Shown one piece after another: positions 4,687 to 18,806 of a stretch of 31,164 nt of DNA. How positions within the stretch are numbered: the stretch's first letter is position 1; each line of letters begins with the position of its first letter. The notes beneath the pieces were generated by a model. The model did no database searches and was not told the DNA's origin. It saw only the letters and a list, made by a program, of their open reading frames with translations. A program made the translations under genes and the position numbers. The stretch spans positions 1-31,164 of IMG/VR virus record IMGVR_UViG_3300042924_002583; one strand, given 5' to 3'. Source of the DNA: a virus.

Positions 4687-5420
4687 AAATAGTTTACTGG
4701 GATAAACACCCTGACGAATACGAACGAGTTAAACACTTTTTAAATTTAGAAGGGTTAGACTGTGAAAGATTTATAGGGGATAGACCTCCGACTGATTTTG
4801 ATTTGCTATTTGTACACGATGGACCATTTGCAGGTGAGATTCCACACGATAGGAGAAAAGACTGCATTATTATTTTTTGCGTTCACCCTATGCACATTAA
4901 CTCATATTTTTATGCAGGATATACAAGGGCAATCCTTAAAAACTCTGAACATAAAAAGCATTGGTTAGGCGATGGTGTTATTTTACCGCCACTTGTAAAA
5001 CTTTACGAACCTGCACCGATAAATGATAAACTTGTTTCAATTATTCACTTCTACAAACAAAGAGACGAACAAGGATATTATCAGGCTTTAAGCTTAGGAG
5101 CTTTAGTTTATGGGCAAGAAAACGACTTAGGAGAGGCAAACGACTCTGAGCTATTTGAGGAGGGAATGAAAGCTCTTGTACACATTAAAAGATGCGGCTA
5201 CTTATGCAATGCGGTAGTAAAAGCTATAAGTTACGGAGTACCTATTATAATGGATAGAGGCACTTACGATTACGGATATCAAGATATTTTAATTCCAAGC
5301 TATAATATGGCAGTAGCAGGAGAAGAGTACAACTTAGATGAAATAAGAGAGAACCAACTCAAACACAGAATAGAACTATACGAACAAACTAAACAATCCG
5401 AAATACTTTCAATACTATGA
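4683..5420 (+). CDS. Putative glycosyltransferase (divergent)
   Basis: The 245-residue protein has the alternating alpha/beta look of a GT-B enzyme: a first strand KIVYWDKHPDEYERV, then FDLLFVHDGPF (59-69), a hydrophobic IIIFCVHPM strand, and a C-terminal half with GYLCNAVVKAISYGVPIIMDRG (about 171-192). The NAVVKAISYGVPII stretch resembles the nucleotide-sugar-binding helix (EAMAxGxPVI type) of GT4-like enzymes. The usual N-terminal Gly-rich acceptor loop is not obvious, so the assignment rests on the C-terminal motif and on the flanking glycosyltransferases, to which it is joined by ATGA overlaps at both ends. It might be a catalytically altered partner rather than an independent enzyme. 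Confidence 0.55.
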   Translation: MKIVYWDKHPDEYERVKHFLNLEGLDCERFIGDRPPTDFDLLFVHDGPFAGEIPHDRRKDCIIIFCVHPMHINSYFYAGYTRAILKNSEHKKHWLGDGVILPPLVKLYEPAPINDKLVSIIHFYKQRDEQGYYQALSLGALVYGQENDLGEANDSELFEEGMKALVHIKRCGYLCNAVVKAISYGVPIIMDRGTYDYGYQDILIPSYNMAVAGEEYNLDEIRENQLKHRIELYEQTKQSEILSIL

Positions 5421-6475
5421 AGATACTTATAATCATACCCGACCCCATTACGGGAGTAGAATACCACCGTTTAATAATCCCTTTTGAGAATATGGGGGGA
5501 GACCACCAAATTACAGCCGTAAAGTCAATAGACCAGCAGCCCGATTCATTCTTTCAGGAGTTTGATTTAATCTACACCAGTTCAGTAGTTAGCAAATTAG
5601 GATTTCAAGAGGTAGTTTGGACACAGCTTAAACGCTTAGGTATTCCCGTAATAATTGACAGAGACGATGACTGGATGCTACCTCACGACCATATAATGAA
5701 GAACGATTGGGTTAAGAATAAAACAGCAGCTCAAATAGTCTACAATTTAAAAATGGCTACTGCTGTAACGGTACCTACTGAGTACTTAGCCCAAAAAGTT
5801 AGACAGTTTAACAAGAATGTGTTTGTAATTCCCAACGCAATAGACTTTAACCAAAAACAATTCCAACCCGATGTAAAAGTTCAGAACCTTAAAAACGAGA
5901 AAGTGCATATAGGCTGGAGCGGTTCCGTTACTCACTTCAAAGACATTGTAATGCTAACCGACACTTTTATGCAAATGAACTCAAACCCTGACTTGAAAGG
6001 AAAGTATAGATTAGTACTGAGCGGATTTGCTGAAGGGGATATGATTTGGAAGGAATACGAGAAAATGTTTACAAGTGGCTACAAAATAGCAGAGGACCAA
6101 TATTGCAGAATAAACGGAATGGACGTATATACTTACGCTTCTGCTTACGATATGATGGATGTCGGGTTAATACCTTTGAAGGATACTGAATTCAATCGCT
6201 GCAAGTCAGAACTTAAAATGATGGAGATGGGTGCAAAGAAACTTCCAGTAATAGTCTCTAACCAGTACCCATACACCAACATAGCTAAACACGGAGAGAA
6301 CTGCTTAATGGCATCAAAAAAGGATTGGTTTAAAAATATCAAGAGGATGATTGACAGCAAAGAGTTAAGAGAAGACTTAGGCGCAGCCTTATATGAAGAA
6401 ATATTTGCAAATTATAATATATTAAATATAAACGAACTAAGAAAGGAGATGTTTAAATATGTCACAAAGAGGTAG
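5417..6475 (+). CDS. Glycosyltransferase, GT4-like
   Basis: The 352-residue protein is a clear GT-B glycosyltransferase. It has an N-terminal strand and loop KILIIIPDPITGVEYHRL (2-19), an acidic IIDRDDDW stretch (79-86), a linker strand VFVIPNAID (135-143), the start of the second Rossmann domain HIGWSGSVTHFKD (164-176), and the donor-binding segment CKSELKMMEMGAKKLPVI (262-279), where acidic residues contact the nucleotide sugar. The length is normal for GT4. The gene overlaps its upstream partner by ATGA and the terminase small subunit gene by 17 bases. It is therefore likely expressed with packaging genes, hinting at a late target such as virion proteins or the envelope. The target is not determinable from sequence. 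Confidence 0.78.
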   Translation: MKILIIIPDPITGVEYHRLIIPFENMGGDHQITAVKSIDQQPDSFFQEFDLIYTSSVVSKLGFQEVVWTQLKRLGIPVIIDRDDDWMLPHDHIMKNDWVKNKTAAQIVYNLKMATAVTVPTEYLAQKVRQFNKNVFVIPNAIDFNQKQFQPDVKVQNLKNEKVHIGWSGSVTHFKDIVMLTDTFMQMNSNPDLKGKYRLVLSGFAEGDMIWKEYEKMFTSGYKIAEDQYCRINGMDVYTYASAYDMMDVGLIPLKDTEFNRCKSELKMMEMGAKKLPVIVSNQYPYTNIAKHGENCLMASKKDWFKNIKRMIDSKELREDLGAALYEEIFANYNILNINELRKEMFKYVTKR

Positions 6476-6893
6476 ACCAAGAGCAATAGAAAGTCCTGAA
6501 ATGTTATTAGAGCTTTTTGAAAAGTACAGAGAAGAGACGAAGTCCAATCCGATTCTTAAACATACATTTGTAGGAAAGGATGGAAAGTCGGTTTATGAAA
6601 AAAGAGAAAGAGCATTGACGATAGATGGCTTTGAAGTCTATTGTTTTAATCAAGGAGTTATAAACGATTTAGGCGATTATTTTCAAAACAAAGGCGAGAG
6701 ATACGGAGATTTTGCAACTATCTGTACACGCATCAGGCAAATCGTTCGTGATGACCAAATACAAGGAGGCTTGGCTGGAGTCTATAATCCGAGCATAACT
6801 CAAAGATTGAATGGGTTAACGGAGAAAGTTCAAACAGAACAAAACATAAATGTCAATAAGCTACCTGAATGGTTGACAAAGCCTATTGAGTAA
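6459..6893 (+). CDS. terS: Terminase small subunit (DNA-packaging protein)
   Basis: The 144-residue protein begins SQRGRPRAIESPEMLLELF, a basic arm and helix typical of small terminases. It continues with TIDGFEVYCF (about 54-63) and ends in a characteristic GGLAGVYNPSITQRLNGLTEK (about 108-128), seen in DNA-packaging proteins of Bacteroidetes phages. It should recognise phage DNA and regulate the large subunit. The large subunit follows directly, with only the stop between. An AAAGGAGAT run at 6442-6450 lies upstream of the ATG at 6459 and may act as a ribosome-binding site, although it is also coding sequence of the glycosyltransferase. Confidence 0.78.
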   Translation: MSQRGRPRAIESPEMLLELFEKYREETKSNPILKHTFVGKDGKSVYEKRERALTIDGFEVYCFNQGVINDLGDYFQNKGERYGDFATICTRIRQIVRDDQIQGGLAGVYNPSITQRLNGLTEKVQTEQNINVNKLPEWLTKPIE

Positions 6894-8045
6894 ATGTTCA
6901 ATCCTAACTTTATCTTTTTAGAGAAGTCAGTAAAGACTAAACGCATTATTGCCTTACAAGGGGGTACTCGTTCAGGTAAGACTTACTCAGCTTTACAATG
7001 GCTTATTAGGTTATGCCTCAAACACGAGGGAATGACTATATCAATAGTTAGGAAAACCTTACCTGCTTTGAAGTCCTCAGCGATGAGGGATTTTATAGAG
7101 ATACTTACATCAATCAATTTATATAACGAGACTGACCATAACAAGTCGGAGAATACTTATATACTCAACAAAAACTTGATTGAGTTCTTTTCAGTAGATG
7201 ATGCTCAGAAGATACGAGGTAGGAAGAGAGACATCCTATTTGTAAACGAAGCAAACGAGATAGACCTTGAGGATTGGAGGCAGTTACTTTTGCGAACGAC
7301 TGGCAAGGTTATTATTGACTATAACCCATCTGACTTTGAGCATTGGATATATGACCAAGTATTAACTCGTGACGATTGCGGATTAATTATAACTACCTAC
7401 AAGGACAATCCTCATCTACCTGATGCGTTAAAAAGGGAAATAGAAAGTCTTGAACAAGCTGACCCTGAGTATTGGAAAATCTTTGGTTTAGGTGAACGAG
7501 GACAATTAATGGGTTTAGTCTTCAACAATTGGACCAATCAATTCGTAGTACCAAATGAAGCTAACTTTATCGGGTACGGATTAGACTGGGGATTCTCAGC
7601 CGACCCTACTGCACTTGTTAGTGTTTGGAAGTACGAGCAAGAGCTATACATAAGAGAAGAGTTATACGAACGAGGATTAACCAATCAAGACATAGCCGAA
7701 AGATTAAAAAGTTTAGAAGTAGGCCGTAAAGAGATATTTGCTGATTCTGCCGAACCCAAAAGTATTGAGGAGGTGTACAGACTTGGTTACAACATAAAAC
7801 CAACACAGAAAGGGAAAGATAGCATCATAAACTCAATTGACATACTGCGAAGGTATAAGCTACATCTAATAGGCAATAATCTACAAAAGGAGTTTAGGAC
7901 CTACAAGTGGAAAACGGACAAAGCAGGAAAGATAGTGAACGAACCAGTGGACTTCAATAATCACTTAATAGATGCTACACGCTATCTTGCATTGATGCGA
8001 TTGCAAGAACATAAGAGAGGACAATATGTTACAATTCGTGCCTAA
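6894..8045 (+). CDS. terL: Terminase large subunit
   Basis: The 383-residue motor-nuclease has Walker A GGTRSGKT at 23-30, Walker B ILFVNEA at 114-120 with the catalytic Glu119, and the coupling motif DYNPSDF at about 142-148. The RNase H-like nuclease has acidic residues at LDWGF (Asp231), FADSAEP (Asp284) and HLIDATRY (Asp360). It powers DNA translocation into the prohead and cuts concatemers. It is slightly short for the family (usually 400-550) but every key motif is present. The ATG at 6894 follows the small-subunit stop immediately. Such TerL proteins are compatible with either cos or headful packaging; the apparently permuted genome favours headful, but this is not proven. Confidence 0.93.
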   Translation: MFNPNFIFLEKSVKTKRIIALQGGTRSGKTYSALQWLIRLCLKHEGMTISIVRKTLPALKSSAMRDFIEILTSINLYNETDHNKSENTYILNKNLIEFFSVDDAQKIRGRKRDILFVNEANEIDLEDWRQLLLRTTGKVIIDYNPSDFEHWIYDQVLTRDDCGLIITTYKDNPHLPDALKREIESLEQADPEYWKIFGLGERGQLMGLVFNNWTNQFVVPNEANFIGYGLDWGFSADPTALVSVWKYEQELYIREELYERGLTNQDIAERLKSLEVGRKEIFADSAEPKSIEEVYRLGYNIKPTQKGKDSIINSIDILRRYKLHLIGNNLQKEFRTYKWKTDKAGKIVNEPVDFNNHLIDATRYLALMRLQEHKRGQYVTIRA

Positions 8046-8063
8046 TTAAATATATAATATAGA

Positions 8064-8654
8064 ATGAAACGCAATTACTATAATTTAACTCTTAAGGACT
8101 TCATAGAGCTACAACAAGTGAAGGACTTGGGGATTGAAGCAAAAAAAAAGAAGCTATCTATTATTTATAAGATAGAGGCTGAGTTCTTTGATGGGTTTAC
8201 CTCTGAGCAGATAATATCGCTCTACTCCGAATTTGAGCAGTTAGAAAGTCAGCCGATTAAGACAACTTACAAGAAAAGAGTTAAGGTAGGCGGTAGATGG
8301 TTTTTTGTTGATTACAGATTAAGTCAAATTAGCGCAAGTCAATTCATAGACATTTCGCACTTTTCAAAAACTAATCCGATTGAGAATATTCACAAGATAG
8401 TAGCTTCGTGTATAAGACCAATTAGCTGGAGATTTGGAAAGCCAAGTAAGTACAACGGAGACGAACACGAAGAAATAAGTGAACTACTACTTAATCAAAT
8501 GAAAGTAAAGGATGCTTATCCGATTATGCTTTTTTTTTGCACTCTCTCAAGCAAATTATCGGACAATATCCTAACTTATTTCCTAAGCACGAAGGAGGAG
8601 ACTTTGAGCAGGCTCAGAACTTTTATACAAAATGGGGATGGGTCGCAACAATAG
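8064..8654 (+). CDS. Tail assembly chaperone-like protein (frame 0, G-like)
   Basis: The 196-residue protein reads YNLTLKDFIELQQVKDLG at the start, has IDISHFSKTNPIENIHKIVASCIRP in the middle (about 95-119), and has LLLNQMKVKDAYPIMLFF near 141-158. This layout of phage tail assembly chaperones or similar Bacteroidetes phage proteins fits its place between terminase and tape measure genes. The last 39 codons (8538-8654) overlap a second open frame shifted by -1. Codon 158 ends on a run of nine T at 8530-8538, so ribosomes may slip there to make a longer G-T-type protein of about 243 residues. The start has an AT-rich leader (AAATATATAAT) and no Shine-Dalgarno sequence. Chaperone identity is inferred from position and frame architecture rather than from a signature motif. 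Confidence 0.6.
   Translation: MKRNYYNLTLKDFIELQQVKDLGIEAKKKKLSIIYKIEAEFFDGFTSEQIISLYSEFEQLESQPIKTTYKKRVKVGGRWFFVDYRLSQISASQFIDISHFSKTNPIENIHKIVASCIRPISWRFGKPSKYNGDEHEEISELLLNQMKVKDAYPIMLFFCTLSSKLSDNILTYFLSTKEETLSRLRTFIQNGDGSQQ
8530..8538 (+). promoter_or_regulatory. Candidate programmed -1 frameshift site (nine-T run)
   Basis: In the frame of the 8064 gene the run reads CTT TTT TTT TGC, which contains T TTT TTT (8531-8537), a canonical X XXY YYZ slippery heptamer. A -1 slip after codon 8535-8537 puts the ribosome at TTG 8537-8539, directly in the frame that stays open to 8794. That second frame opens at 8495 but has no ATG before the run. A natural or sequencing indel in the homopolymer splitting one gene is the alternative. 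Confidence 0.6.
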
Positions 8655-8794
8655 ATAATTTAGCTAACCACGATAAAACAAAGTGGGACTACTTTTTTAA
8701 TTTAGGACTGAAGGAGTTTTTTAATATAGTAAGCTACCACATTGAACACACGGAACAGATAAAGAAAGAGAATGGCAGAAACAGACTACACTAA
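8537..8794 (+). CDS. Tail assembly chaperone extension (T-like, -1 frame)
   Basis: This frame encodes about 85 residues, including FYTKWGWVATIDNLANHDKT (about 29-48), a Trp-Gly-Trp pattern common in a Bacteroidetes phage family that follows such genes. It has no ATG. The only initiator-like codon, TTG at 8537, lies within the slippery nine-T run, and no ribosome-binding site precedes it. The best reading is therefore the C-terminal extension of the 8064 gene product, made by -1 frameshifting as in the lambda G/GT pair. The 118 bases shared with the first frame look fuller in G/C than their surroundings, consistent with dual coding. It overlaps the next gene by 23 bases. Confidence 0.62.
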   Translation: MHSLKQIIGQYPNLFPKHEGGDFEQAQNFYTKWGWVATIDNLANHDKTKWDYFFNLGLKEFFNIVSYHIEHTEQIKKENGRNRLH

Positions 8795-9398
8795 GTTATT
8801 AGGCGATTTAGGAACAGACGCAGAAGCTGGTCCTATTCAGTTTGATTCTATTATTGAGGAGGCCTTAGTTAGGTTTGTCAATGGCTTAACCGATACTATG
8901 AAATCTAACCTAACCGAGTTAGATGCTTACTATGCGGATTCGGAATTAGTGCAGTCAATAATCACTTTACCTTTGAGTGCCAATGGGAATAGTTTTGAAA
9001 TGTCTATTGAGATGAACTATTACGGTGACTTTTTAAACGAGGGTGTAAGTGGTACTCGTAACAAATTCAATTCACCTTATTCATTCAAAAAAGAGTCAGT
9101 CAGTCCAGCCTTTAATAAGTCATTGAGAAAATGGATTACAAAGAGAGGCTTTCCGATTGAGAGTAGGTATTCACAAACAAGAGATTTGACGAAGGACCAA
9201 AGAAAGAAAAAACAAATTGATGAGAAGACGCAGATGGCTTACGCGATGGGAATAGGTATTAAGCGAGAAGGTATAAAACCAACTAATTTTATCAACGATG
9301 CACTAAGCGAACGCAATGTAGCAGCATTCGCACAAGGATTAGCTGATGCGTTAGGTAGGTCAATTGAAATTACGATAACAAAAAATATTTTAAAATGA
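8772..9398 (+). CDS. Tail completion / HK97 gp10-like protein (probable)
   Basis: The 208-residue protein has SFEMSIEMNYYGDFLNEGVSGT (about 74-95), the strand-turn pattern with Tyr-Gly-x-Phe-Leu-(Asn)-x-Gly seen in HK97 gp10-like tail or neck proteins. A basic region follows (RKWITKRGF and KDQRKKKQ), then a C-terminal helix-strand (ADALGRSIEITITKN). Proteins of this type sit at the head-tail interface or in the tail. It lies between the chaperone pair and two large tail proteins and overlaps both neighbours by short stretches, so it belongs to the tail operon. Family assignment is tentative; structural membership is likely. Confidence 0.55.
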   Translation: MAETDYTKLLGDLGTDAEAGPIQFDSIIEEALVRFVNGLTDTMKSNLTELDAYYADSELVQSIITLPLSANGNSFEMSIEMNYYGDFLNEGVSGTRNKFNSPYSFKKESVSPAFNKSLRKWITKRGFPIESRYSQTRDLTKDQRKKKQIDEKTQMAYAMGIGIKREGIKPTNFINDALSERNVAAFAQGLADALGRSIEITITKNILK

Positions 9399-10618
9399 TT
9401 ATAAATTCACAGCCAAACAATTGGCAGAATGTATACAATGAGATGGTATTCGGATTGGAGAGTACTAACGCAACTGCTGCGGGTTTTCAATTCTTGGTGG
9501 ACATTAATGTAAGCGGACAGACTAACCCAGTCGCAAGATTGACTTACCCAAAACAGCCAGGCATTAACACGATAGATGTAGATGTGAGTGAAGTACTACG
9601 CAACTATGTTAGCTATGACTTCGCAAGTTATAACGCATCTGGTATCTATCATTGCATAAACTCTAAGGTTGACTACTGGGTTGAGTTCGGAGAGGTACGC
9701 AACAATGCTTCAGGTATACCAGTAATTTACCCTAACTTAACTGGGTTCTATGCAAGTGGTAATAACGCACATTCAACAAATGCTATTTTTGATTTCTTAG
9801 ACTGGAGCAAAACAGCATTCATTGATTACAATGTAAACTCACCAATTGAATCAGGTTTAACTTTGAATCAAACTACCTTTCAAGAAAAGCTCAGATATGG
9901 TGAGGAAAGGTTTTTAACTTATTTTGATTACGATGAAATCTATGGTACTGGTATAGTAGGTAATATCAATGTTCAGGTATTAGATAAAAATCTAAATTTA
10001 TTAATTGAGTCAAATGCTGGATTCACTCCGATTGGGTCAATTAATTCAATCAATGTCGCTAACTCAGGTAATGCAAGTGGATATTACAAATCTGTTTATG
10101 ATGCAGCCTTTGACTATCCCAATGCTGTGTACTATAGAGTCAATGGTCAGAACACGGCTGGTAGTGGCGCAACAACTTATTTTAGCAGAACTTTCTTAAT
10201 TGATACGAGCTGTCAAAAGTATTCGCCAATTAGATTACATTGGTTAAACAACTTGGGTGGATTTGATGCTTACACATTCACGAAAGTAAGCAGAAACTTT
10301 ACGGACATTGAAAGAAAGATGTTTAAGAAGTTCCAACCTTTGAACTATCCTAAAACCTTCAGAGCGAAAACAAACTACTTTACTAAACTAACAGACACAA
10401 TTCAAATAAATTCCGATGGGTTGACCGATGCCGAATGGATAGGATTAAAAGAGTTAGTACTAAGTCCAGTAGTAATGATGGAGTATGGAGCGACTTATAT
10501 ACCGGTGAACATTAAAGAAAGCAATTACGAAGAAAAGATATACATCAACGATAGACAAATCAGCTCACTTCAATTGACTTTAGAATATACCTTTGACAAT
10601 TATCGCCAATCACTATGA
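9395..10618 (+). CDS. Tail / baseplate structural protein (hypothetical)
   Basis: The 407-residue protein is beta-rich, with many Asn, Gly, Ser and Thr residues (for example YNASGIYHCINSK and SGNASGYYKSVYD) and few charged helices, as expected of phage tail-tip or baseplate proteins. The N-terminus (MIINSQPNNWQNVYNEMVF) is a typical opening in tail proteins of Bacteroidetes phages located just ahead of a very large tail protein, as here. The C-terminal region (RKMFKKFQPLNYPKTFRAKT and EWIGLKELVLSP, about 305-350) has a compact domain feel. It is joined by short overlaps to genes on both sides. The exact role (distal tail, hub or fibre adaptor) cannot be told. Confidence 0.6.
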   Translation: MIINSQPNNWQNVYNEMVFGLESTNATAAGFQFLVDINVSGQTNPVARLTYPKQPGINTIDVDVSEVLRNYVSYDFASYNASGIYHCINSKVDYWVEFGEVRNNASGIPVIYPNLTGFYASGNNAHSTNAIFDFLDWSKTAFIDYNVNSPIESGLTLNQTTFQEKLRYGEERFLTYFDYDEIYGTGIVGNINVQVLDKNLNLLIESNAGFTPIGSINSINVANSGNASGYYKSVYDAAFDYPNAVYYRVNGQNTAGSGATTYFSRTFLIDTSCQKYSPIRLHWLNNLGGFDAYTFTKVSRNFTDIERKMFKKFQPLNYPKTFRAKTNYFTKLTDTIQINSDGLTDAEWIGLKELVLSPVVMMEYGATYIPVNIKESNYEEKIYINDRQISSLQLTLEYTFDNYRQSL

Positions 10619-13242
10619 ACCAAACAGAATTAAAAATAATAGCTTATAACGCTTCAGGAATTGTAAGTAATACTTGGGATGTGGATTTGTACGATTCAGT
10701 TCCAATGCCTATTAATAAATCAATCGTTGACATCCGTGAACCTGACAAGAGACAGAGTGATTATTCTAAATCATTAACTATTCCAGGCACAGCAAATAAC
10801 CATTCAATTTTCTCTGCGATATTCAACATAGATAGAGCTACGATTAACACATCAAGTTTAAATTTCAATCCTGATTTCAATCCGAATTTAAAAGCTGAGG
10901 CTATCCTTTATCGCAAAGGAATCCAACAACTCAGAGGATACTTGCAATTGGTAAGTATTAAGAATGTAGATGGAGCGATTGAATACGAATGTGTAATAAT
11001 CGGAAAGTTTGCTAACCTATTCCAAGACTTAGGGGAGTTGAGTCTACAAGAGTTAGATTTATCAGCATTTAATCACGAATGGACCAAAGATAATGTAGAG
11101 AAGAGCTGGAACATTTCAATTGTCAGAAACGGAACTGAGTACTTCAATTTCAATGCAAGTGCGCAGCCTGATGGTATAGGTTATGTCTATCCACTTATTG
11201 ACAGAGGTAATTCTCTTAATAACGGAGAGATGACTTATAACTTGAATACTATGTATCCAGCAGTTTATGCTAAACAAGTAGTAGATTCTATTTTTGCTGG
11301 AGTAGGTTATAGATATCAATCTAACTTTTTCAATAGTCAACGATTTAAAAATCTGTTAATCCCTTTTTGTGGTGGAGAGTTTAGGATGGGTGCTACTCAA
11401 GTTGAGGACCGAACTTTTTTAATGACTAACTCTACTGCTTTAACTTATACAAGTTCATTGCAATTCAGTTCAGGAATTTTTAAAATAGGTTTAAATACAA
11501 ACGATAATGATACTAACCCATCAGGAGTAAGTACTGCGAATAATTGGTGGTTAGCTCCAAGTGGATTGCAAGGTGATTATAGATTTGCGATTGAGGGAAC
11601 TATAAGTTCAGTCCCAAATGCTGGTACTGGTAGCAGAAGAGTAAGAGTGATATGTGGAGTGCGAGTAGATAGAGGTGGAGTAATAACTACAATAGGTTCA
11701 ACATTATTTGAGATAGTAACAAACACATCAAAGGTTATTTCTTATAACACAAATGTTTTCACGATTCAGCCTGGCGATAAAGTTTTCTGCTATATGGAGT
11801 ATTTCTCCATCGCATCAAGTGTAGATATCCGACAAATAGGTTTAAGGTTTGAAGAAGACTTCGCATTATTCTCTAATCCAGTATCAGTATATCAAGAAGG
11901 ACAAATTATAGACATTGGTTCAGCACTACCTGAGAAAACTAAGCAAACCGAATTCTTGCAGTACTTGATTAAGATGTTCAACTTGTATGTTGAGGTAGAT
12001 AAGATAGATGAGAAAAAATTAATCATTGAACCAAGAGACGAATTCTACACAGAGAATTTAGTTGACTTAACTCAGTACTTAGATGTCTCACAAGAGCTTG
12101 AGATTAAACCAATGGGTTTACTTGACTTCCGTGTATTTGAGATGAGTTACAAATCCGATACTGATGAGTTCAATAAAAAATATGAGGATGTATATCGTGA
12201 GTCATTTAGTGCTGTCAAGTTTAACATAAATAACGATTTTGTTAGAGAAAGTAAAGTAGTTGAGTTAGGATTTAGTGCTACTCCATCAGCAGATGCTCCT
12301 GATGTAAATGATAGAATAATTCCTAAGATAAGACCTGAAGACCCAAGTACTGGTTCAGCAAATTTGCCAGTCTATAACATTCGTATTTTGCAATACGGAG
12401 GATTAATTGAAACAGCTACAACTTGGAATTTGAACTACAATGCTACAGCAAATCAGAACTATGATGTCTATCCATATGCTGGAATGTTAGATAGCGTAAC
12501 AGCTCCGACTTTCTCACTTGAGGTAAGTACTCCGAAGGCATATTTTTATGGCAGTAGACCAGCAATAACTACAGCTAACTTGTACAATTCTTACTGGTTA
12601 AAAACTATGTCTGAGATAACCGACAAAGATTCCAAGTTAGTTAGTGCTTACTTTCATCTTTCGCCTAATCAGTTAGCTAATTTATCGTTCAGAGACTACT
12701 ACCGAATTGACCAACAATATTACCGACTTCATCAAGTTGAATATGACTTAAATTCCAATGAACCAGTTAAGATTGAATTCCTAAAGTTAAAGTTAGCTCC
12801 AGCATTTATTAGCGAATCAACTACTACCAACGGAGGTTATGCAACCTTCCAACCTGAGCAGCCTAATCTACCTGATATATTATTGCCTAATTTAGATAAG
12901 TCAAGTAATACAGAATTCCTAAACGATAGAGATAAAATCTACACAGATATCCAATATACTAACGACTCGTATGTATTTTTAGATTTTACACAAACTATTT
13001 GGCTTTTAGATAGTAGCAGTAGAGTTTATCTACCTGATGCTAACTTGCAGAAATTAAAGACTGGTTATCCTTTAATTATAACGCATAATCAAGGTTCAAG
13101 CGACATAACTATTTATCCAAGTGCTGGTCAATTCATCCACAATACAGATACAAGTTTTACCCTTAAAAATAAACATACAGCTTGGTTTGTTCCTTACGAT
13201 GGTAAATGGACAGTAATTTTAAACAATAACACAAATGTATAA
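10615..13242 (+). CDS. Large tail protein (putative baseplate hub / tail tip)
   Basis: At 875 residues this is the longest protein in the genome. It starts with KIIAYNASGIVSNTWDVDLY and then DKRQSDYSKSLTIPGTANN (about 44-62), a stretch characteristic of large tail proteins in Bacteroidetes phages and prophages. The middle is beta-rich with FLQYLIKMFNLYVEVDK (about 443-459). This matches the tail-hub (gpD/gp27-like) tendency to pair a tail-associated domain with beta barrels. The C-terminal 110 residues (SNTEFLNDRDKIYT onward) form a separate beta-rich module ending in TAWFVPYDGKWTVILNN, perhaps a carbohydrate-contacting tip. It precedes the tape measure gene. The hub role is inferred from size, order and composition. 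Confidence 0.6.
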   Translation: MNQTELKIIAYNASGIVSNTWDVDLYDSVPMPINKSIVDIREPDKRQSDYSKSLTIPGTANNHSIFSAIFNIDRATINTSSLNFNPDFNPNLKAEAILYRKGIQQLRGYLQLVSIKNVDGAIEYECVIIGKFANLFQDLGELSLQELDLSAFNHEWTKDNVEKSWNISIVRNGTEYFNFNASAQPDGIGYVYPLIDRGNSLNNGEMTYNLNTMYPAVYAKQVVDSIFAGVGYRYQSNFFNSQRFKNLLIPFCGGEFRMGATQVEDRTFLMTNSTALTYTSSLQFSSGIFKIGLNTNDNDTNPSGVSTANNWWLAPSGLQGDYRFAIEGTISSVPNAGTGSRRVRVICGVRVDRGGVITTIGSTLFEIVTNTSKVISYNTNVFTIQPGDKVFCYMEYFSIASSVDIRQIGLRFEEDFALFSNPVSVYQEGQIIDIGSALPEKTKQTEFLQYLIKMFNLYVEVDKIDEKKLIIEPRDEFYTENLVDLTQYLDVSQELEIKPMGLLDFRVFEMSYKSDTDEFNKKYEDVYRESFSAVKFNINNDFVRESKVVELGFSATPSADAPDVNDRIIPKIRPEDPSTGSANLPVYNIRILQYGGLIETATTWNLNYNATANQNYDVYPYAGMLDSVTAPTFSLEVSTPKAYFYGSRPAITTANLYNSYWLKTMSEITDKDSKLVSAYFHLSPNQLANLSFRDYYRIDQQYYRLHQVEYDLNSNEPVKIEFLKLKLAPAFISESTTTNGGYATFQPEQPNLPDILLPNLDKSSNTEFLNDRDKIYTDIQYTNDSYVFLDFTQTIWLLDSSSRVYLPDANLQKLKTGYPLIITHNQGSSDITIYPSAGQFIHNTDTSFTLKNKHTAWFVPYDGKWTVILNNNTNV

Positions 13243-13369
13243 TAGATTCAAAGAATTAATTGAACAAACGGAATTTGAAGAGCTAATTAAATTAATTGAT
13301 TTAGCTGATTCAAGTATATTAAATATAATCATTAACACAGAAAACGAGGTATTGAATGGCGCAAAATAA
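13235..13369 (+). CDS. Small hypothetical protein (44 aa) before tape measure gene
   Basis: A short open frame, ATG at 13235 to TAA at 13369, encodes 44 residues (start MYNRFKELIEQTEFEELIKL). It overlaps the end of the large tail gene by 8 bases and the start of the tape measure gene by 14, filling the otherwise empty gap exactly. The protein is acidic, leucine/isoleucine-rich and predicted helical, without a membrane segment. Its tight fit supports a real gene, perhaps a small tape-measure chaperone, but length and lack of family make this uncertain. Confidence 0.5.
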   Translation: MYNRFKELIEQTEFEELIKLIDLADSSILNIIINTENEVLNGAK

Positions 13370-15092
13370 TGTAGTAATAAAAACAGCAGTAGATACTGGC
13401 GATTCGGTGGAGCAAATAGATGAGTTAAGTAAGTCAACGGAAGGCTTAAATAAGAATCTAAAAGAAACACAGAAGGAAGCTAAAGAGGCTGAGAAGAAAT
13501 TAGAAAAGGCTACCGATGCTGTTGGAAGGATGCCAGGCCCTATCGGAGGTGCAGTGGATGGGTTTAAAAATATGCTTAGTTCATTTAAAGCTATTATTGC
13601 CTCACCTATCGGAATGGTATTAGCAGCAGTAGCAGTAGTTTTAGGAACTTTAACAGCTTTATTCTCAAATTTCAGCCCTATTGTAGATTTTCTTTCTGAT
13701 AAGATTGCTTTATTAAATGGCGCATTTAGAGGACTTCAAACTCAATTTGCAAGTTTAATTCAGGGTACTGGATTCTCTACTGAAAAAATTAAGGAACAAG
13801 CCTTAGCAATGCAAGAGGCTGAACGAATGGGTAGAGATTACGAGGACAATTTATCAGCAGTAAATTTAAGTCAGGCTAAACTTGAAAGGCAAATTGATGT
13901 CAATTTAAAAAGGCTAAAAAATAAAAACATAACCGAGAAGGAGTCAAACGCAATTATTGAAGAAACGATAAGACTTCAAAAAGAACAAATAGCAGGACTT
14001 CAAGAACAACAAAAGCAAGAAACTGAAATTTTAAAAACAAAAGTTATAGCTGCTGGAGGTAGTTATAAACAAATTTTAGCAATAGCAAGAGGGGCAAGAG
14101 TAGCTGAATTAAATACTGGCAATGAAGCCTTAGACAAAGAGTTAATAGCACTTCAAGAAAACTATAAAAAAAGAACTCAAGAGGTAAGTACCTACGAGCA
14201 AAAGTATGAAAGAATCCAAAACGTAAGAGATTCTCAGGACCAAAAATTTGCAGGTAAAAGAGAAGCACGAAGGAAAGCAGAAGAGGAACAGAGAAAGAAA
14301 GAAATTGAACAATCGGCTAAACTTTTGGAGCAATACGACAAGCAACAGAAGGATAGAGAAGAGGCTGTTAAGACTGGATTTGATAAGACCTCTAAACTAA
14401 CTGAAGATTATTACAAAAAACAAGCAACTGATTTAGTAAATCAAAATCTTAGCGATAAGGATTTAAAGAAAGCTCAAGATGAATTAGAACTCCAACGACT
14501 TAACCAACAGCTTGAAAATGCTAAGATGTATGGACAGTCTACTACTGACATTGAAAAGGCAATAGCAGATAAGAGATACTCAATTAATAAAGAGAATGCA
14601 GATGCTCAAAAGAAACTTGACGATGAAGTAGCAGCAAACAGAGTTAAGAGTTTAGAGTCTTATTCTAATTCACTAAAAACTTTTGCAAGTGTATTGGGAG
14701 AAAGCACAGCAGAAGGAAAAGCCTTAGCAGTAGCAGCCGCAACAATTGATACTTATTTAGGAGCGGTTAAGGCCTACAATACACAGTTAACTCCTGGCGA
14801 CCCTACCTCACCATTTAGAGGAGCTTTGGCAGCAGCAGCAGTAGTGGCAGCAGGTATAGCAAACGTCAATAAGATTTTAGCTGTTCAGGTACCAGGTGGA
14901 GGCGGTAGAGGTAGTGCGAGTATGTCAGCTCCGCCAATGACAAGACCAGCAAGTTCATTTACACGAATAGACAATACAAATCCGATTGATGTAAACAATA
15001 CTGGTGCGACTAAAGTATATGTGACTGAAACCGATATTACGAATACACAAAAGAAAGTTGACTCTATTAAAGCTAAGGCTGTAATAGGTTAA
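13356..15092 (+). CDS. Tape measure protein
   Basis: The 578-residue protein shows tape-measure traits. There is an N-terminal coiled coil (about 17-55), a Gly-rich turn GPIGGAVDGF (61-70), and a hydrophobic membrane-like segment at about 80-103 (IASPIGMVLAAVAVVLGTLT). Long charged coiled coils rich in Lys, Glu and Gln follow (about 140-430), then an Ala-rich hydrophobic end (ALAAAAVVAAGIANVNKILAVQ). It would set tail length and pass through the host envelope on DNA ejection. By the usual rule of about 0.15 nm per residue, the tail would be roughly 85-90 nm. This is short for a siphovirus but reasonable. Downstream are the head genes, an unusual order. Confidence 0.85.
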   Translation: MAQNNVVIKTAVDTGDSVEQIDELSKSTEGLNKNLKETQKEAKEAEKKLEKATDAVGRMPGPIGGAVDGFKNMLSSFKAIIASPIGMVLAAVAVVLGTLTALFSNFSPIVDFLSDKIALLNGAFRGLQTQFASLIQGTGFSTEKIKEQALAMQEAERMGRDYEDNLSAVNLSQAKLERQIDVNLKRLKNKNITEKESNAIIEETIRLQKEQIAGLQEQQKQETEILKTKVIAAGGSYKQILAIARGARVAELNTGNEALDKELIALQENYKKRTQEVSTYEQKYERIQNVRDSQDQKFAGKREARRKAEEEQRKKEIEQSAKLLEQYDKQQKDREEAVKTGFDKTSKLTEDYYKKQATDLVNQNLSDKDLKKAQDELELQRLNQQLENAKMYGQSTTDIEKAIADKRYSINKENADAQKKLDDEVAANRVKSLESYSNSLKTFASVLGESTAEGKALAVAAATIDTYLGAVKAYNTQLTPGDPTSPFRGALAAAAVVAAGIANVNKILAVQVPGGGGRGSASMSAPPMTRPASSFTRIDNTNPIDVNNTGATKVYVTETDITNTQKKVDSIKAKAVIG

Positions 15093-15121
15093 AACTTATC
15101 TAAAAAAAACTATCTAAATAT

Positions 15122-16753
15122 ATGGCTAAACTTCCTTTATACGAGCTACTAATTAACGAGGACGAAGAGACTGGAGTAGACTTTATTGCTTTGGTTGATT
15201 CTCCAGCAATTGAGTATGACTGGGTAGCTTTCTCTCAGCAATTTGAGACTTACAGCGACTATCCAAAAGCTGCAAGTGAAAACGCAAAAAGAGCGATTGA
15301 GTTAAAAGAAAAATACAATTTAGAATGCGGAACTCAGGTCGGATGGGTAAGAGCTTCTCAATTAGCAAACGGAGAGAACCTTAGTAGAGAAACGATTGCG
15401 AGAATGTCAGGTTTTGAAAGGCATAGAGAGAATTCTAAAGGTGACCCAAAAGAGGACTGCGGAGCTTTAATGTGGTTAGCTTGGGGCGGTGATGAAGGGG
15501 TAGAATGGGCAAGTAGAAAGTTAAAACAGATTGACGAGTTTGTAGTAGAACCAAAAGCTGGAGAAGACAAGAACGAGTTTATTAGCAGATGTATTTCTGT
15601 TGAAGTCGGAAACGGAATTGAACAAGAACAAGCTGCTGCTATTTGTTACACTAAGTGGGATAAAAAAAGTTTTAGTTTTAAGACTACCGACAAGCAGATA
15701 ATAAGTGGACCAGCAATGATTCCTAACCAATCTATTTACAGAAGGAGTAAAGATGGTGAAGAATACAATGTTATTTTCTCTAAAGAAACGATTCAAAAAA
15801 TAGTTGAGAGATATTTCAAGAATCAGTATGTAACTAACTTCAATCTTCAGCATAAGAAAAATATGTTAGCGGATGGAGTTTATCTTATTGAGTCTTTCAT
15901 CATTGATTCAAGCAGAGGAATAAAAACACCTGAAGGATTTGAAGACCTACCCGATGGCACTTGGTTTATTTCGTGCAAAGTAGATAACGAAGAGATTTGG
16001 AACGATTATATCAAGAGTGGTAAGTTTAAAGGATTCTCAGTAGAGGGATTATTCACAGATAGAAAAGTAGAGATGGTTTCAAATGTTCAAGAGGCTATCG
16101 CATTGATTGATAAATTACAATTAAATAAAACAAATATATATAACAATATGAGCGATGTAAAAGTGCTATTAAGCAAACTCAAAGAAATCTTTTCAGAAGA
16201 GGCAGTTATGTCATTTGAAGAGGCAAAATTAGCTGATGGAATTACCATTATAAAGTGGGAAGGACCATTAGCAGAAGGAACAAGTGTTATGGTTATTAGT
16301 GAGTCAGGTGAAGTACCAGCTCCAGATGGTGAACACGAGCTTCAAGATGGTAGAAAAATCACAATTGAAAATGGTAAAGTAACTGCTATCGTTTTACCTG
16401 AAGTTCCAGCTGAATCTCCTGAAGAAGAACCATCAGTAGAGGTAGAAATTGAAGCTAAACAAAAAATGGCTGAAGATTACCTTCCAATGATTGAGGCAAT
16501 GGGTGCTAAGATTATGAAAATGGAAGAAATGATGGCAGCTTTAGAGGCTAAAATTTCTGAGAAGATGGGCGCAACAGAGGAGAAAATGAATACTCAAAAA
16601 GATGCTTTCTCTAAGTTAGTTGAAATAGTTGAAAAGTTAGCAGATGCTCCTTCTGAAGTTGTAGAAGCTAAACCTTTCAATGTAAACTTTCAAGCTGAAA
16701 AAGAAAATCAGTACAATAAATTAAACGATATTTTAAACATATTAAATAAATAA
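15122..16753 (+). CDS. Prohead protease-scaffold fusion (XkdF-like)
   Basis: The 543-residue protein is modular. The start is the leader LYELLINEDEETGVDFIALVDSPAIEYDW. Residues about 43-140 form an inserted domain (SDYPKAASENAKRAIELK; VGWVRASQLANGENLS; ALMWLAWGGDEGVEWA), and FISRCISVE plus AAAICYTKW (153-179) form a motif common in phage head proteases. The XkdF-like protease core spans about 195-315, with His244 (NLQHKK) and Ser306 (FKGFSVEG) as likely catalytic residues. The rest is a low-complexity DG-repeat region and a C-terminal coiled coil (about 446-543) that fits a scaffold. It should process the prohead. It directly precedes the major capsid gene. An internal ATG at codon 343 may yield the scaffold separately. 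Confidence 0.75.
   Translation: MAKLPLYELLINEDEETGVDFIALVDSPAIEYDWVAFSQQFETYSDYPKAASENAKRAIELKEKYNLECGTQVGWVRASQLANGENLSRETIARMSGFERHRENSKGDPKEDCGALMWLAWGGDEGVEWASRKLKQIDEFVVEPKAGEDKNEFISRCISVEVGNGIEQEQAAAICYTKWDKKSFSFKTTDKQIISGPAMIPNQSIYRRSKDGEEYNVIFSKETIQKIVERYFKNQYVTNFNLQHKKNMLADGVYLIESFIIDSSRGIKTPEGFEDLPDGTWFISCKVDNEEIWNDYIKSGKFKGFSVEGLFTDRKVEMVSNVQEAIALIDKLQLNKTNIYNNMSDVKVLLSKLKEIFSEEAVMSFEEAKLADGITIIKWEGPLAEGTSVMVISESGEVPAPDGEHELQDGRKITIENGKVTAIVLPEVPAESPEEEPSVEVEIEAKQKMAEDYLPMIEAMGAKIMKMEEMMAALEAKISEKMGATEEKMNTQKDAFSKLVEIVEKLADAPSEVVEAKPFNVNFQAEKENQYNKLNDILNILNK
16148..16753 (+). CDS. Nested in-frame scaffold protein start (candidate)
   Basis: Within the protease-scaffold gene, in the same frame, Met343 lies exactly at the junction between the protease core and the scaffold part. 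The DNA before it (AAATATATATAACAAT, 16132-16147) looks like an intergenic leader: it matches the AT-rich AAATATATA tracts before several independently started genes here (8064, 15122, 18399, 21869). Translation from this ATG would give 201 residues: a helix, a beta DG-repeat domain and a long coiled coil. Nested scaffold starts are known, for example lambda Nu3 within C. This is inference from leader and domain boundary. Confidence 0.5.
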   Translation: MSDVKVLLSKLKEIFSEEAVMSFEEAKLADGITIIKWEGPLAEGTSVMVISESGEVPAPDGEHELQDGRKITIENGKVTAIVLPEVPAESPEEEPSVEVEIEAKQKMAEDYLPMIEAMGAKIMKMEEMMAALEAKISEKMGATEEKMNTQKDAFSKLVEIVEKLADAPSEVVEAKPFNVNFQAEKENQYNKLNDILNILNK

Positions 16754-16757
16754 AAAA

Positions 16758-17714
16758 ATGGCATTCTCGGTAGGAACATTAACTGGCTATGTTAAAGCCA
16801 ATGAAAGAGAATTATTGACTAAGTCTTTATTCTCAGCAAAATCAATCAGTTTGGCATCTAAAATGCCGAATGTAAAATCTTCTTCTCAATTAAACTTGAT
16901 GGATACTGACGCAGTATTTCAATCAGGTGTTTCTTGTGGATTCGTAGCATCAGGTACTACAACTTTCACTCGCAGAAATATGACTGTTTCTCCGATTAAA
17001 GTTCACGAATCTTTATGTCCAAAGACTTTGGAAAACACTTGGTTAGGTTTAGTTTTACCTTCAGGTTCAAATCCAAAATCAATTCCATTTGAACAACAAT
17101 TCACAGACTTAAAAGCTGGTTTAATTGCACAAAATTTGGAGAGAGCTTTTTGGCAAGGTGACACTGGAAGTGGTGATAACGCTTTAGCTCAATTTGATGG
17201 TATGATTAAATTGGTTACAAGTGTATCAGGTAGTGCAATTGCTGCTAACTCTTCTGCATTTATGAGTGGTGCGCCTTACTCAGCAACTGGTGGTATCACA
17301 ACTTCAAATGTAATCGCAATTTTGCAAGGAGTTTTCAGAGCAATTCCAGCAGCATTAGTAGACAAAACTGATACAACAATTTTCGTTGGTATTGATACCT
17401 TCAGAACTTATCAGTTAGCTTTAACTAACGCTAACCTTTTCCATTACAATACAGATGCTTCAAGCAGTAACTTTGAAATCGTTATGCCTGGTACTAACAT
17501 TAAAGTAGTAGGAGTAAACGGATTGAATGGTACTAACAGAATCTATGCATTACGCACATCAAATATGTTCTTCGGATGTGATGTACTTGGTGAAGAGTCT
17601 AAGTTTGAATTGTTCTGGGCGCAAGAGGCTATGGAAGTTCGTTATGTATGCGAGTTCAAAGCTGGTGTACAAATCGCATTCCCAGCTGAAATCGTTTATT
17701 ATGTAGGAGCTTAA
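16758..17714 (+). CDS. Major capsid protein (HK97 fold, probable)
   Basis: The 318-residue protein follows the protease-scaffold gene by 4 bases and has the composition of a capsid protein: small residues, few cysteines, and a C-terminal beta sheet (NIKVVGVNGLNGTNRIYALR; MEVRYVCEFKAGVQIAFPAEIVYYVG). A central helix bears IPFEQQFTDLKAGLIAQNLERAFW (about 112-135), like the spine helix. The domain after TTIFVGIDTFRTYQLALT resembles the A-domain of HK97-like capsid proteins. A strong hairpin terminator follows its stop, as expected for the most abundant protein. I see no clear maturation cleavage site. The assignment rests on order, size and C-terminal pattern. Confidence 0.8.
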   Translation: MAFSVGTLTGYVKANERELLTKSLFSAKSISLASKMPNVKSSSQLNLMDTDAVFQSGVSCGFVASGTTTFTRRNMTVSPIKVHESLCPKTLENTWLGLVLPSGSNPKSIPFEQQFTDLKAGLIAQNLERAFWQGDTGSGDNALAQFDGMIKLVTSVSGSAIAANSSAFMSGAPYSATGGITTSNVIAILQGVFRAIPAALVDKTDTTIFVGIDTFRTYQLALTNANLFHYNTDASSSNFEIVMPGTNIKVVGVNGLNGTNRIYALRTSNMFFGCDVLGEESKFELFWAQEAMEVRYVCEFKAGVQIAFPAEIVYYVGA

Positions 17715-17727
17715 ACAATAATGTAAG

Positions 17728-17769
17728 AAGGGGATTCGGTTTAATAAGTTAAGCCTTATCCCCTTTTTT
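17728..17769 (+). terminator. Rho-independent terminator after the capsid gene
   Basis: AAGGGGAT (17728-17735) pairs perfectly with ATCCCCTT (17758-17765), giving 8 pairs. Inside a 2x2 internal loop, GGTTTAA (17738-17744) pairs with TTAAGCC (17749-17755), including one G-U, around a 4-base loop. The stem runs straight into TTTTTT (17764-17769). This two-part stem with a U-tract is the best terminator in the window and lies in the 80-base gap after the capsid gene. Confidence 0.85.
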
Positions 17770-17794
17770 ATAAAAATAAAAGGAGAATAAAAAA

Positions 17795-18304
17795 ATGGCG
17801 TGTGCAGTAACATCAGGTTATACATTAGATTGCAAGGACGCAGTCGGTGGTTTAAAGAATATCTATTTTGCTAATGGTTTACCTTCAGCAGCTACTATAA
17901 CAAGTACAACTGCAAGTGGAATCTCAAATGTAAGTGGAGTAAGTTTTTACAAGTACGAGTTAATGCCTCAAGCAGCAGATTCGTTTACAGAAGAAATCAC
18001 TTCAGCCCCAGCAAATGGAACAGTTTTCTACACTCAAACAGTAGTAACAAATTTCGCTAAAATGAGTCAAACTTCACGCAATAAGTGGTTGACTTTAGCG
18101 CAAGCTCGTTTGTTAACTATCATTGAGAAAAAGGATGGTACATTTTGGTTACTTGGTGAAGTTAACGGATTAGAAGTAAGTGCTGGTTCACATACAAGTG
18201 GAGCTGCAATGGGTGACTTCAACGGAGTTCAGTTAACTTTAACTGGAATGGAGGCTGCTCCAGCTCAAGTCTTGACGAGCGCATCTGCGTTTAGTAAAAT
18301 TTAG
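17795..18304 (+). CDS. Virion structural protein, possibly tail tube or capsid-associated
   Basis: The 169-residue protein opens ACAVTSGYTLDCKDAVGG and has FYKYELMPQAADSFTEEIT (51-69), VFYTQTVVTNFAKMSQTSRNKW (about 77-98) and a C-terminal GDFNGVQLTLTGMEAAPA. This pattern is common to a family of Bacteroidetes phage and prophage structural proteins. The beta-rich middle and terminal LTLTGxE strand are like tail tube proteins, though a capsid decoration role is equally consistent with its place right after the capsid gene. Terminators lie on both sides, so it forms its own short transcription unit or the tail of read-through. The ATG at 17795 is preceded by AAAGGAGA (about 17779-17786), a possible ribosome-binding site in a genome that mostly lacks them. 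Confidence 0.6.
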   Translation: MACAVTSGYTLDCKDAVGGLKNIYFANGLPSAATITSTTASGISNVSGVSFYKYELMPQAADSFTEEITSAPANGTVFYTQTVVTNFAKMSQTSRNKWLTLAQARLLTIIEKKDGTFWLLGEVNGLEVSAGSHTSGAAMGDFNGVQLTLTGMEAAPAQVLTSASAFSKI

Positions 18305-18336
18305 GCTTCAAGATAGGGTTGTTTCATAGTTAGATT

Positions 18337-18360
18337 AGGTAGCTCACAAGGCTACCTTTT
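18337..18360 (+). terminator. Rho-independent terminator
   Basis: AGGTAGC (18337-18343) pairs perfectly with GCTACCT (18351-18357) across a 7-base loop and continues into TTTT (18357-18360), followed by further T/A-rich sequence. It lies in the 94-base gap between the structural gene ending at 18304 and the gene starting at 18399, and ends the short unit that starts after the capsid terminator. Confidence 0.78.
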
Positions 18361-18398
18361 CTATTTTATAACTTTTTGTATTTTTTCTATATACATAT

Positions 18399-18806
18399 AT
18401 GGTCAATTTAACCTATGGCGAGAACGAATTGTTGTTAACTGGTACAGAAAACATAACTGATCCAAACATAACTACATTGAATCAGGCTTGGTTTGGTATT
18501 TACTCACAAGTTACTAAGCAAACTAAATGGGTTAAGGTAGTGAATCAATCTAACTATTTGCCAAGATGCGACAATTTTGAAATGACAATTGTTAACAGCC
18601 AAGAAGCAGAAGACTTGTTAGAAGGAATAGTTTATTTAAAAGAGAAAGGATTCTACGAGTATTCGCTATACACAAATACAGGTGGAGAAAGTCCAAACGA
18701 AAATGATACACTACTTGAAAGAGGAAAGTGTTTATTAGAATTTAGCGATGCAACAATAACAACATATGACCCAAATATTGAAGTAATAGTTTATGACAGA
18801 CAATAA
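18399..18806 (+). CDS. Hypothetical virion-associated beta-rich protein
   Basis: The 135-residue protein is rich in predicted strands (NLTYGENELLLTGTENIT; WVKVVNQSNYLPRCDNFEMTIV; FYEYSLYTNTGGE) and ends with CLLEFSDATITTYDPNIEVIVYD. A short N-terminal beta sandwich with a YEYxLYxxT motif and a [LV]LExGK-type stretch is a recurring pattern in Bacteroidetes phage proteins located beside capsid or portal genes. No enzyme motif is visible. Its start has an AT-rich leader ending in ATATACATAT. It overlaps the portal gene by 14 bases, so it probably belongs to the head module as a minor structural or fibre-base protein. Confidence 0.55.
   Translation: MVNLTYGENELLLTGTENITDPNITTLNQAWFGIYSQVTKQTKWVKVVNQSNYLPRCDNFEMTIVNSQEAEDLLEGIVYLKEKGFYEYSLYTNTGGESPNENDTLLERGKCLLEFSDATITTYDPNIEVIVYDRQ

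What the first reader, a model, noticed from the sequence alone, without database searches (positions are those of the whole stretch)
8530..8794. Nine-T run joining two overlapping tail chaperone frames
The frame of the 8064 gene reads CTT TTT TTT TGC, a perfect T TTT TTT slippery heptamer. A -1 slip enters a frame open to 8794 that has no ATG. Both frames look coding over the shared 118 bases, and the second contains the FYTKWGW pattern of a separate phage family. Position between terminase and tape measure matches the G/GT chaperone pair. The predicted fusion is 158 + 85 = 243 residues.
Basis: partly seen in the sequence, partly recalled or inferred. Interest (0 to 1): 0.7.

Follow-up and report, generated by a model that had tools for sequence, protein, structure and literature searches.

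The report
Phage tail gene with slippery T-run
A phage gene that probably helps build the virus tail makes a short and a long protein from one reading frame by slipping on a run of nine T's, and because hundreds of related phages keep that run at nine or more, the slip is probably made by the RNA-copying enzyme rather than by the ribosome as in textbook phages.

Summary
Window 8064-8654 (196 aa) reads CTT TTT TTT TGC over nine T's (8530-8538). A -1 shift there gives a 158+85 = 243-residue fusion. It is not an artefact: 15/15 closest IMG/VR relatives keep the layout base for base, and cultured Nonlabens phages P12024L/S carry the same split gene, annotated as two genes. A distant relative (22% identity) encodes both halves in one frame. 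Over the 118-base overlap both frames are under purifying selection.

The new result is run length. A scan that allowed T7 found 119 loci, all needing -1, with T9, T10 or T11 and never T7 or T8. In searches using only the upstream domain, 78 of 79 readable viral loci and 8 of 8 independent bacterial loci had T9 with the second frame at -1. Where the T upstream of the heptamer is missing, an extra T appears downstream (6/6 versus 2/56 clusters, p = 5e-7). No downstream RNA structure was found.

Tail-chaperone function is likely but rests on layout, weak profile hits and weak fold matches. I rate it a new variant of the G/GT strategy.

The parts
8064..8654 (+). 0-frame gene (G-like, 196 aa); the short product
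   Evidence: 196-aa length kept in all 16 close relatives; AF2 model pLDDT 88
8530..8538 (+). T9 run, the slip site
   Evidence: invariant in close relatives; T9-T11 in all 161 collected sites; T9 in 78 of 79 readable run-independent viral loci
8537..8794 (+). -1 frame (T-like, 85 aa + stop), reached only through the slip; contains FYTKWGW
   Evidence: homologues; AF2 model pLDDT 85
8537..8654 (+). 118-base stretch under constraint in both frames
8630..8641 (+). KWGW codons in the -1 frame, invariant in the aligned T domains (A6); members were collected with this motif, but later G-only searches recovered the same T domain
8772..9398 (+). next gene (208 aa), whose ATG lies inside the end of the -1 frame; used to find more relatives
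6894..8045 (+). large terminase gene directly upstream (conserved synteny)
   Evidence: found in 48 of 59 other cluster representatives, all those with enough upstream sequence or nearly so
13356..15092 (+). tape-measure gene, three genes downstream

Best explanation
This is one gene of a Bacteroidota (Flavobacteriia-type) tailed phage that makes two proteins sharing 158 N-terminal residues: a 196-aa short form from the plain reading frame, and a 243-aa long form in which a second domain (KWGW domain) is joined on in the -1 frame. Inferred mechanism: when RNA polymerase copies the A9 template, the U9:A9 hybrid slips and a fraction of transcripts gain one U (or lose two). Ribosomes reading those mRNAs without any shift of their own make the long form; unaltered mRNAs give the short form. 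Shown: the two frames, their conservation, double constraint in the overlap, the fused homologue, and selection on a run of at least nine T's whatever its phase. Inferred: slippage at transcription rather than at translation (about 3 to 1), and the role as a tail-assembly chaperone pair analogous to lambda gpG/gpGT (about 0.75), in which the short form would coat the tape-measure protein and the long form would recruit the tail tube protein.
For: T9 layout identical in 15/15 relatives and L027. Cultured phage P12024L has CTT TTT TTT TAT at the same junction, and P12024S matches in the same way. The fusion is homologous end to end to one unbroken 256-aa frame, and seven single-chain viral proteins of 226-267 aa match both the G model and the T model. 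Viral scan allowing T7: 119/119 loci need -1 and have T9, T10 or T11; all 161 sites have T9 141, T10 18, T11 2. The same kind of pattern in bacterial genomes gives the chance decline T6 87, T7 29, T8 13, T9 1, and the one T9 is a true member. Searches with the G domain alone: 78 T9 loci with T at -1 of 79 readable viral loci; 9 of 9 bacterial loci that have both domains show T9, 8 of them independent of the run-based search. Phase compensation: 6/6 versus 2/56 clusters, p = 4.6e-7. Downstream RNA structure no stronger than shuffles (mean z -0.3). Literature: bacterial slippage on runs of 9 A or T and an RNA-DNA hybrid of 9-10 bp (PMC5009743); anti-Shine-Dalgarno occluded in Flavobacterium ribosomes, which weakens the usual bacterial frameshift stimulator (PMC10783764).
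Against: Every T9 also contains an in-phase T TTT TTT, so ribosomal slippage is not excluded. SD-like tetramers 5-17 nt upstream are somewhat enriched (19/62 clusters versus 3-12 at control positions), though they overlap conserved Gly-Ala/Gly-Ser codons and the window has none. No transcript or protein data exist. Chaperone function has no direct test; the position directly after terminase is unusual.
Confidence: 0.68

Rival explanations
1. Programmed -1 ribosomal frameshifting on T TTT TTT, as in lambda G/GT: tandem Phe-tRNAs re-pair one base back and the ribosome continues in the T frame.
For: In-phase heptamer in every member; known mechanism for tail chaperones (PMC5009743); weak enrichment of SD-like tetramers upstream.
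Against: The heptamer needs seven T's, yet no T7 or T8 occurs in 119 scanned loci or in the run-independent sets; no T TTT TTC site was found, although 25% of Phe codons elsewhere in these genes are TTC (204 of 809); a T lost on one side of the heptamer is regained on the other; no downstream structure; anti-SD is occluded in Bacteroidota (PMC10783764).
Confidence: 0.25
2. Internal or coupled initiation makes the T domain as a free protein, starting for example at TTG 8537 or after the 0-frame stop.
For: TTG at 8537 is a possible start codon; P12024L gp41 is annotated from an internal ATG.
Against: 33 of 60 cluster representatives have no ATG, GTG or TTG between the slip and KWGW, and 58 of 60 have no ATG; the 0-frame stop lies at a variable 23-82 codons downstream; fused single-frame homologues exist; free initiation would not require a T9.
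Confidence: 0.02
3. Sequencing or assembly error, or a decayed gene: really T8 or T10 in one frame.
For: Homopolymers are error-prone; one of 79 readable run-independent loci (L311) is T10 and in frame.
Against: Same T9 in hundreds of independent metagenome assemblies and in cultured phage records; overlap constrained in both frames; 0-frame end conserved.
Confidence: 0.01
4. A phase-variable switch: replication slippage in the phage DNA gives mixed T9 and T10 genomes, so only some virions carry the in-frame gene.
For: T9 runs mutate fast; L311 could be such an in-frame variant.
Against: Practically every assembled genome is in the out-of-frame state; a switch would show both states often, and a structural chaperone needed in each infection is a poor candidate for on/off switching.
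Confidence: 0.04

Closest known systems
Phage lambda gpG/gpGT and its relatives (tail assembly chaperones expressed by programmed -1 ribosomal frameshift)
   Same: Two products sharing an N-terminal domain; the second domain in the -1 frame without its own start; the gene lies upstream of the tape-measure gene in the late region.
   Different: No detectable sequence similarity; slip site is a T run of at least nine in any phase, not a fixed heptamer; no stimulatory structure seen; gene follows the terminase and is not adjacent to the tape-measure gene; both domains are longer.
Programmed transcriptional slippage at runs of nine A or T in bacteria (Thermus dnaX; Shigella mxiE, spa13, spa33; IS elements), reviewed in PMC5009743
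   Same: Homopolymer of nine or more at the frame junction, run length conserved, two length variants from one gene.
   Different: Those are host or IS genes; here it is a phage gene family, probably tail assembly. Slippage itself is not measured here.
Nonlabens phage P12024L/P12024S gp40 and gp41 (phrog_32199 and phrog_38404)
   Same: True homologue: same place after the terminase, same CTT TTT TTT N junction, same -1 relation, same KWGW domain.
   Different: Annotated as two separate hypothetical proteins, the second from an internal ATG; about 21% identical over the fusion.
Single-frame relatives (L018 ORF of 256 aa; BFVD entries such as A0A516L611 and A0A516L5A8)
   Same: Both domains in the same order.
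   Different: No frameshift needed, so presumably only the long form is made.

Membership tests
Frameshift-expressed tail assembly chaperone pair (G/GT type) | Second frame overlaps the first at -1 and lacks its own start | tested here: met
Frameshift-expressed tail assembly chaperone pair (G/GT type) | Slip site and both frames conserved across relatives | tested here: met
Frameshift-expressed tail assembly chaperone pair (G/GT type) | Gene pair directly upstream of the tape-measure gene | tested here: not met
   three genes (208, 407, 875 aa) lie between; so it is described as working like G/GT, not filed as a member by position
Frameshift-expressed tail assembly chaperone pair (G/GT type) | Sequence or profile match to a tail assembly chaperone family | tested here: inconclusive
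   window itself no match; 2 of 63 relatives hit Phage_TAC_7 (best E 0.003) and 3 hit phrog_166 'tail protein' (best E 4e-6)
Frameshift-expressed tail assembly chaperone pair (G/GT type) | Fold of a tail assembly chaperone | tested here: inconclusive
   BFVD: many uncharacterised phage proteins first; the named matches below them include three tail assembly chaperones at E 0.1-0.6, probability 0.41-0.80; no PDB match
Frameshift-expressed tail assembly chaperone pair (G/GT type) | Short form binds tape measure, long form binds tube protein, both absent from virions | not testable with these tools
   needs biochemistry
Programmed transcriptional slippage | Homopolymer of nine or more A/T at the frame junction | tested here: met
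   T9-T11 in 161/161 collected sites; T9 in run-independent sets
Programmed transcriptional slippage | Selection on run length independent of codon phase | tested here: met
   phase compensation 6/6 versus 2/56, p = 4.6e-7
Programmed transcriptional slippage | mRNAs of more than one length at the run | not testable with these tools
   needs RNA sequencing
Programmed -1 ribosomal frameshifting | In-phase X XXY YYZ heptamer | tested here: met
   T TTT TTT in phase
Programmed -1 ribosomal frameshifting | Stimulatory downstream structure or upstream Shine-Dalgarno-like element | tested here: inconclusive
   no structure above shuffles (mean z -0.3); SD-like tetramers 19/62 versus 3-12 in controls

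The most novel reading that the evidence does not exclude
A large group of Bacteroidota phages sets the ratio of its two tail-assembly chaperone forms by programmed slippage of RNA polymerase on a T9 run, replacing the ribosomal frameshift used by other tailed phages; possibly because Bacteroidota ribosomes hide the anti-Shine-Dalgarno sequence that helps bacterial frameshifting.
Probability: 0.55. Interest if true: 0.72.

Novelty: new variant of a known kind. Interest (0 to 1): 0.62.

Why it matters
The ratio of short to long chaperone is a classic example of a biologically necessary ribosomal frameshift. If a whole phage group reaches the same outcome by transcriptional slippage, then the two-product architecture is what is conserved and the decoding step is exchangeable, as already known for dnaX. 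It would be, as far as the papers searched here show, the first tail-assembly case of this kind, and it gives a simple test of whether the missing Shine-Dalgarno interaction in Bacteroidota shapes recoding. In practice, annotation pipelines split these genes: GenBank and PHROGs list the P12024 halves as two hypothetical proteins, so a KWGW frame after a T9 run is a usable marker.

Tried and rejected
No DNA or protein match to the window's gene in 50,697 phage records. Pfam, PHROGs and NCBIfam gave nothing for the window's own protein. Foldseek and VIA-align against PDB gave no meaningful match for the G model, and a sequence search of PDB none. The first genome-contig scan found no relative. 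P2 region fetched for gpE did not cover the gene and was dropped. Flavobacterium phage 6H has a fold neighbour (R9VW65), but the ORF I take to be it (191 aa, 10352-10927, matched by length) shows no T9 and no recognisable T part. The idea that T9 arises from a heptamer plus hydrophobic codons on each side was considered and rejected because run length is kept when the upstream residue is Gly, Ala or Ser. Papers searched for a prior report: none found in the open-access library held; subscription papers and preprints were not searchable.

Full report
1. The T-run at 8530-8538 has nine T's; the gene from 8064 reads CTT TTT TTT TGC across it and ends at 8654 after 196 codons, and the -1 frame is open from 8495 to 8794 without an ATG. 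The predicted fusion is 158 + 85 = 243 residues. The window is an IMG/VR virus record of 35% G+C with a Terminase_3 large subunit directly upstream, a tape-measure protein, an XkdF-type protease and a portal protein.

2. It is not an error. Fifteen IMG/VR contigs encode relatives of 76-99% identity; all have the same 728-nt layout, the same T9 and a 196-aa 0 frame. In the DNA alignment the stretch ATGCTTTTTTTTTGCA is invariant while an A9 run in the same gene is not. A sixteenth relative found through the neighbouring gene agrees (L027). In cultured Nonlabens phage P12024L the two genes after the terminase, gp40 and gp41, are the two halves of the same thing: ATACTTTTTTTTTATC, again CTT TTT TTT TAT, with the second frame at -1; P12024S matches in the same way. 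A 22%-identical relative, L018, encodes the whole length as one frame of 256 aa. Seven predicted viral proteins of 226-267 aa match both the model of the 196-aa product and the model of the second domain. So the fusion is a real protein architecture, and the short form is its truncated partner.

3. Both frames matter in the overlap. In ten relatives the third codon position varies at 86% of sites upstream and 76% in the T-only part, but only 42-47% in the overlap for either frame. The ratio of non-synonymous to synonymous codon differences is 1.84 for the 0 frame and 1.81 for the -1 frame there, while the same 0 frame read on into the T-only part gives 7.38. The short form's own tail is therefore under some constraint in this clade. 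Across the wider family its length varies widely, 23-82 codons in the cluster representatives.

4. Run length is the key. I scanned viral contigs for T7 or longer followed 80-110 bases on by AARTGGGGNTGG. Every one has a long upstream frame (105 codons or more even where the contig is cut) that reaches the KWGW frame only by -1, and every run is T9, T10 or T11. Thirteen P12024-like loci are all T9. Over 161 sites: T9 141, T10 18, T11 2, in 62 clusters at 60% identity. For comparison the similar pattern with T6 in bacterial genomes gives the declining series expected by chance (T6 87, T7 29, T8 13, T9 1), and the single T9 is a true member in a Winogradskyella genome.

5. The result does not depend on having searched for T's. 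A profile of the upstream domain alone was run against about 1,190 genomes centred on that Winogradskyella genome (family, class, phylum). Of 11 matches, nine have the second domain next to them, and all nine have exactly T9 at the junction, down to E = 6e-5; one of the nine (L281) is the locus that led to the genome, so eight are independent. The other two are weak and lack the second domain. Likewise one upstream domain used as a query in viral contigs gave 80 loci: 78 with T9 and T at -1, one cut off before the junction, and one (L311) with T10 and in frame. L311 may be a homopolymer error or a real in-frame variant; I cannot tell.

6. Transcription or translation? A ribosomal site needs T TTT TTT or T TTT TTC. 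T9 always contains the former, so the heptamer is present whichever mechanism acts. Three facts favour the polymerase. First, no T7 or T8 and no T TTT TTC was seen, although 204 of 809 Phe codons elsewhere in these genes are TTC. Second, in most clusters the run extends one T to each side of the heptamer, which hydrophobic codons could explain; but in the six clusters where the upstream T is absent (codon GGT, GCT or AGT) two T's follow instead, 6/6 against 2/56 of the rest (Fisher p = 4.6e-7). Total length is conserved, not position. Third, downstream RNA is no more structured than shuffled sequence (mean z -0.3). Nine is also the length cited for bacterial slippage, and the RNA-DNA hybrid is 9-10 bp (PMC5009743). 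Shine-Dalgarno stimulation is unlikely in Flavobacterium-type ribosomes (PMC10783764), although SD-like tetramers are mildly enriched upstream (19/62 against 3-12), probably because of conserved Gly-Ala/Gly-Ser codons; this is the main loose end. I put transcriptional slippage at about three to one.

7. Internal initiation is excluded for most members: 33 of 60 representatives have no ATG, GTG or TTG between slip and KWGW.

8. Function. The N-terminal domain is predicted with confidence (pLDDT 88) and ends in a long helix, residues 148-190, that crosses the slip site; the second domain is helical and begins with a helix (pLDDT 85). PDB offers no match. In viral models, after uncharacterised proteins, the named matches include three tail assembly chaperones, at low significance. 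Two relatives hit Phage_TAC_7 weakly and three hit phrog_166, 'tail protein'. With the layout of a shared N-terminal domain plus a -1 domain, a tail chaperone pair is the most likely role, at about 0.75. The gene does not sit next to the tape measure, so I describe it as working like G/GT rather than filing it as a positional member.

9. Novelty. The architecture is known; a phage tail gene family that keeps a T run of nine or more as its slip site was not found in the papers searched, whose coverage is limited to open-access texts. New variant of a known kind.

Noticed in passing
window 8141-8149: An A9 run inside the same gene, present only in the window's closest relatives; slippage there would produce out-of-frame mRNAs, so it may be costly or recent.
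   Followed up: partly
L029 5279-5446 (P12024L gp41): gp41 is annotated as a free 55-aa protein from an internal ATG; the evidence says it is the C-terminal part of a -1 fusion with gp40, so the GenBank annotation and two PHROGs (32199, 38404) should be joined.
   Followed up: yes
L311 near position 1989: Single T10, in-frame exception among 79 readable run-independent loci; homopolymer error or a real in-frame variant.
   Followed up: partly
L030-L148, just after the T-run: In most relatives the third reading frame meets a stop about two codons after the run, so an mRNA that lost one U would stop at once. May follow from the conserved L-x-F-R codons.
   Followed up: no
window 6459-20751: Unusual late-gene order: terminase, chaperone pair, tail genes, tape measure, protease, capsid, portal.
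   Followed up: no
L293 10352-10927 (Flavobacterium phage 6H): The ORF whose length fits fold neighbour R9VW65; it ends in TGT TTT TTC TAT with no T9 and no recognisable second domain. It may belong to a branch with another way of making the long form.
   Followed up: partly
L018 4436-5008: A second ORF directly upstream of the single-frame relative looks similar in kind (a possible paralogue of the chaperone).
   Followed up: no
window 5417-6475: A glycosyltransferase gene (phrog_7162, E 2e-62) directly upstream of the terminase genes.
   Followed up: no
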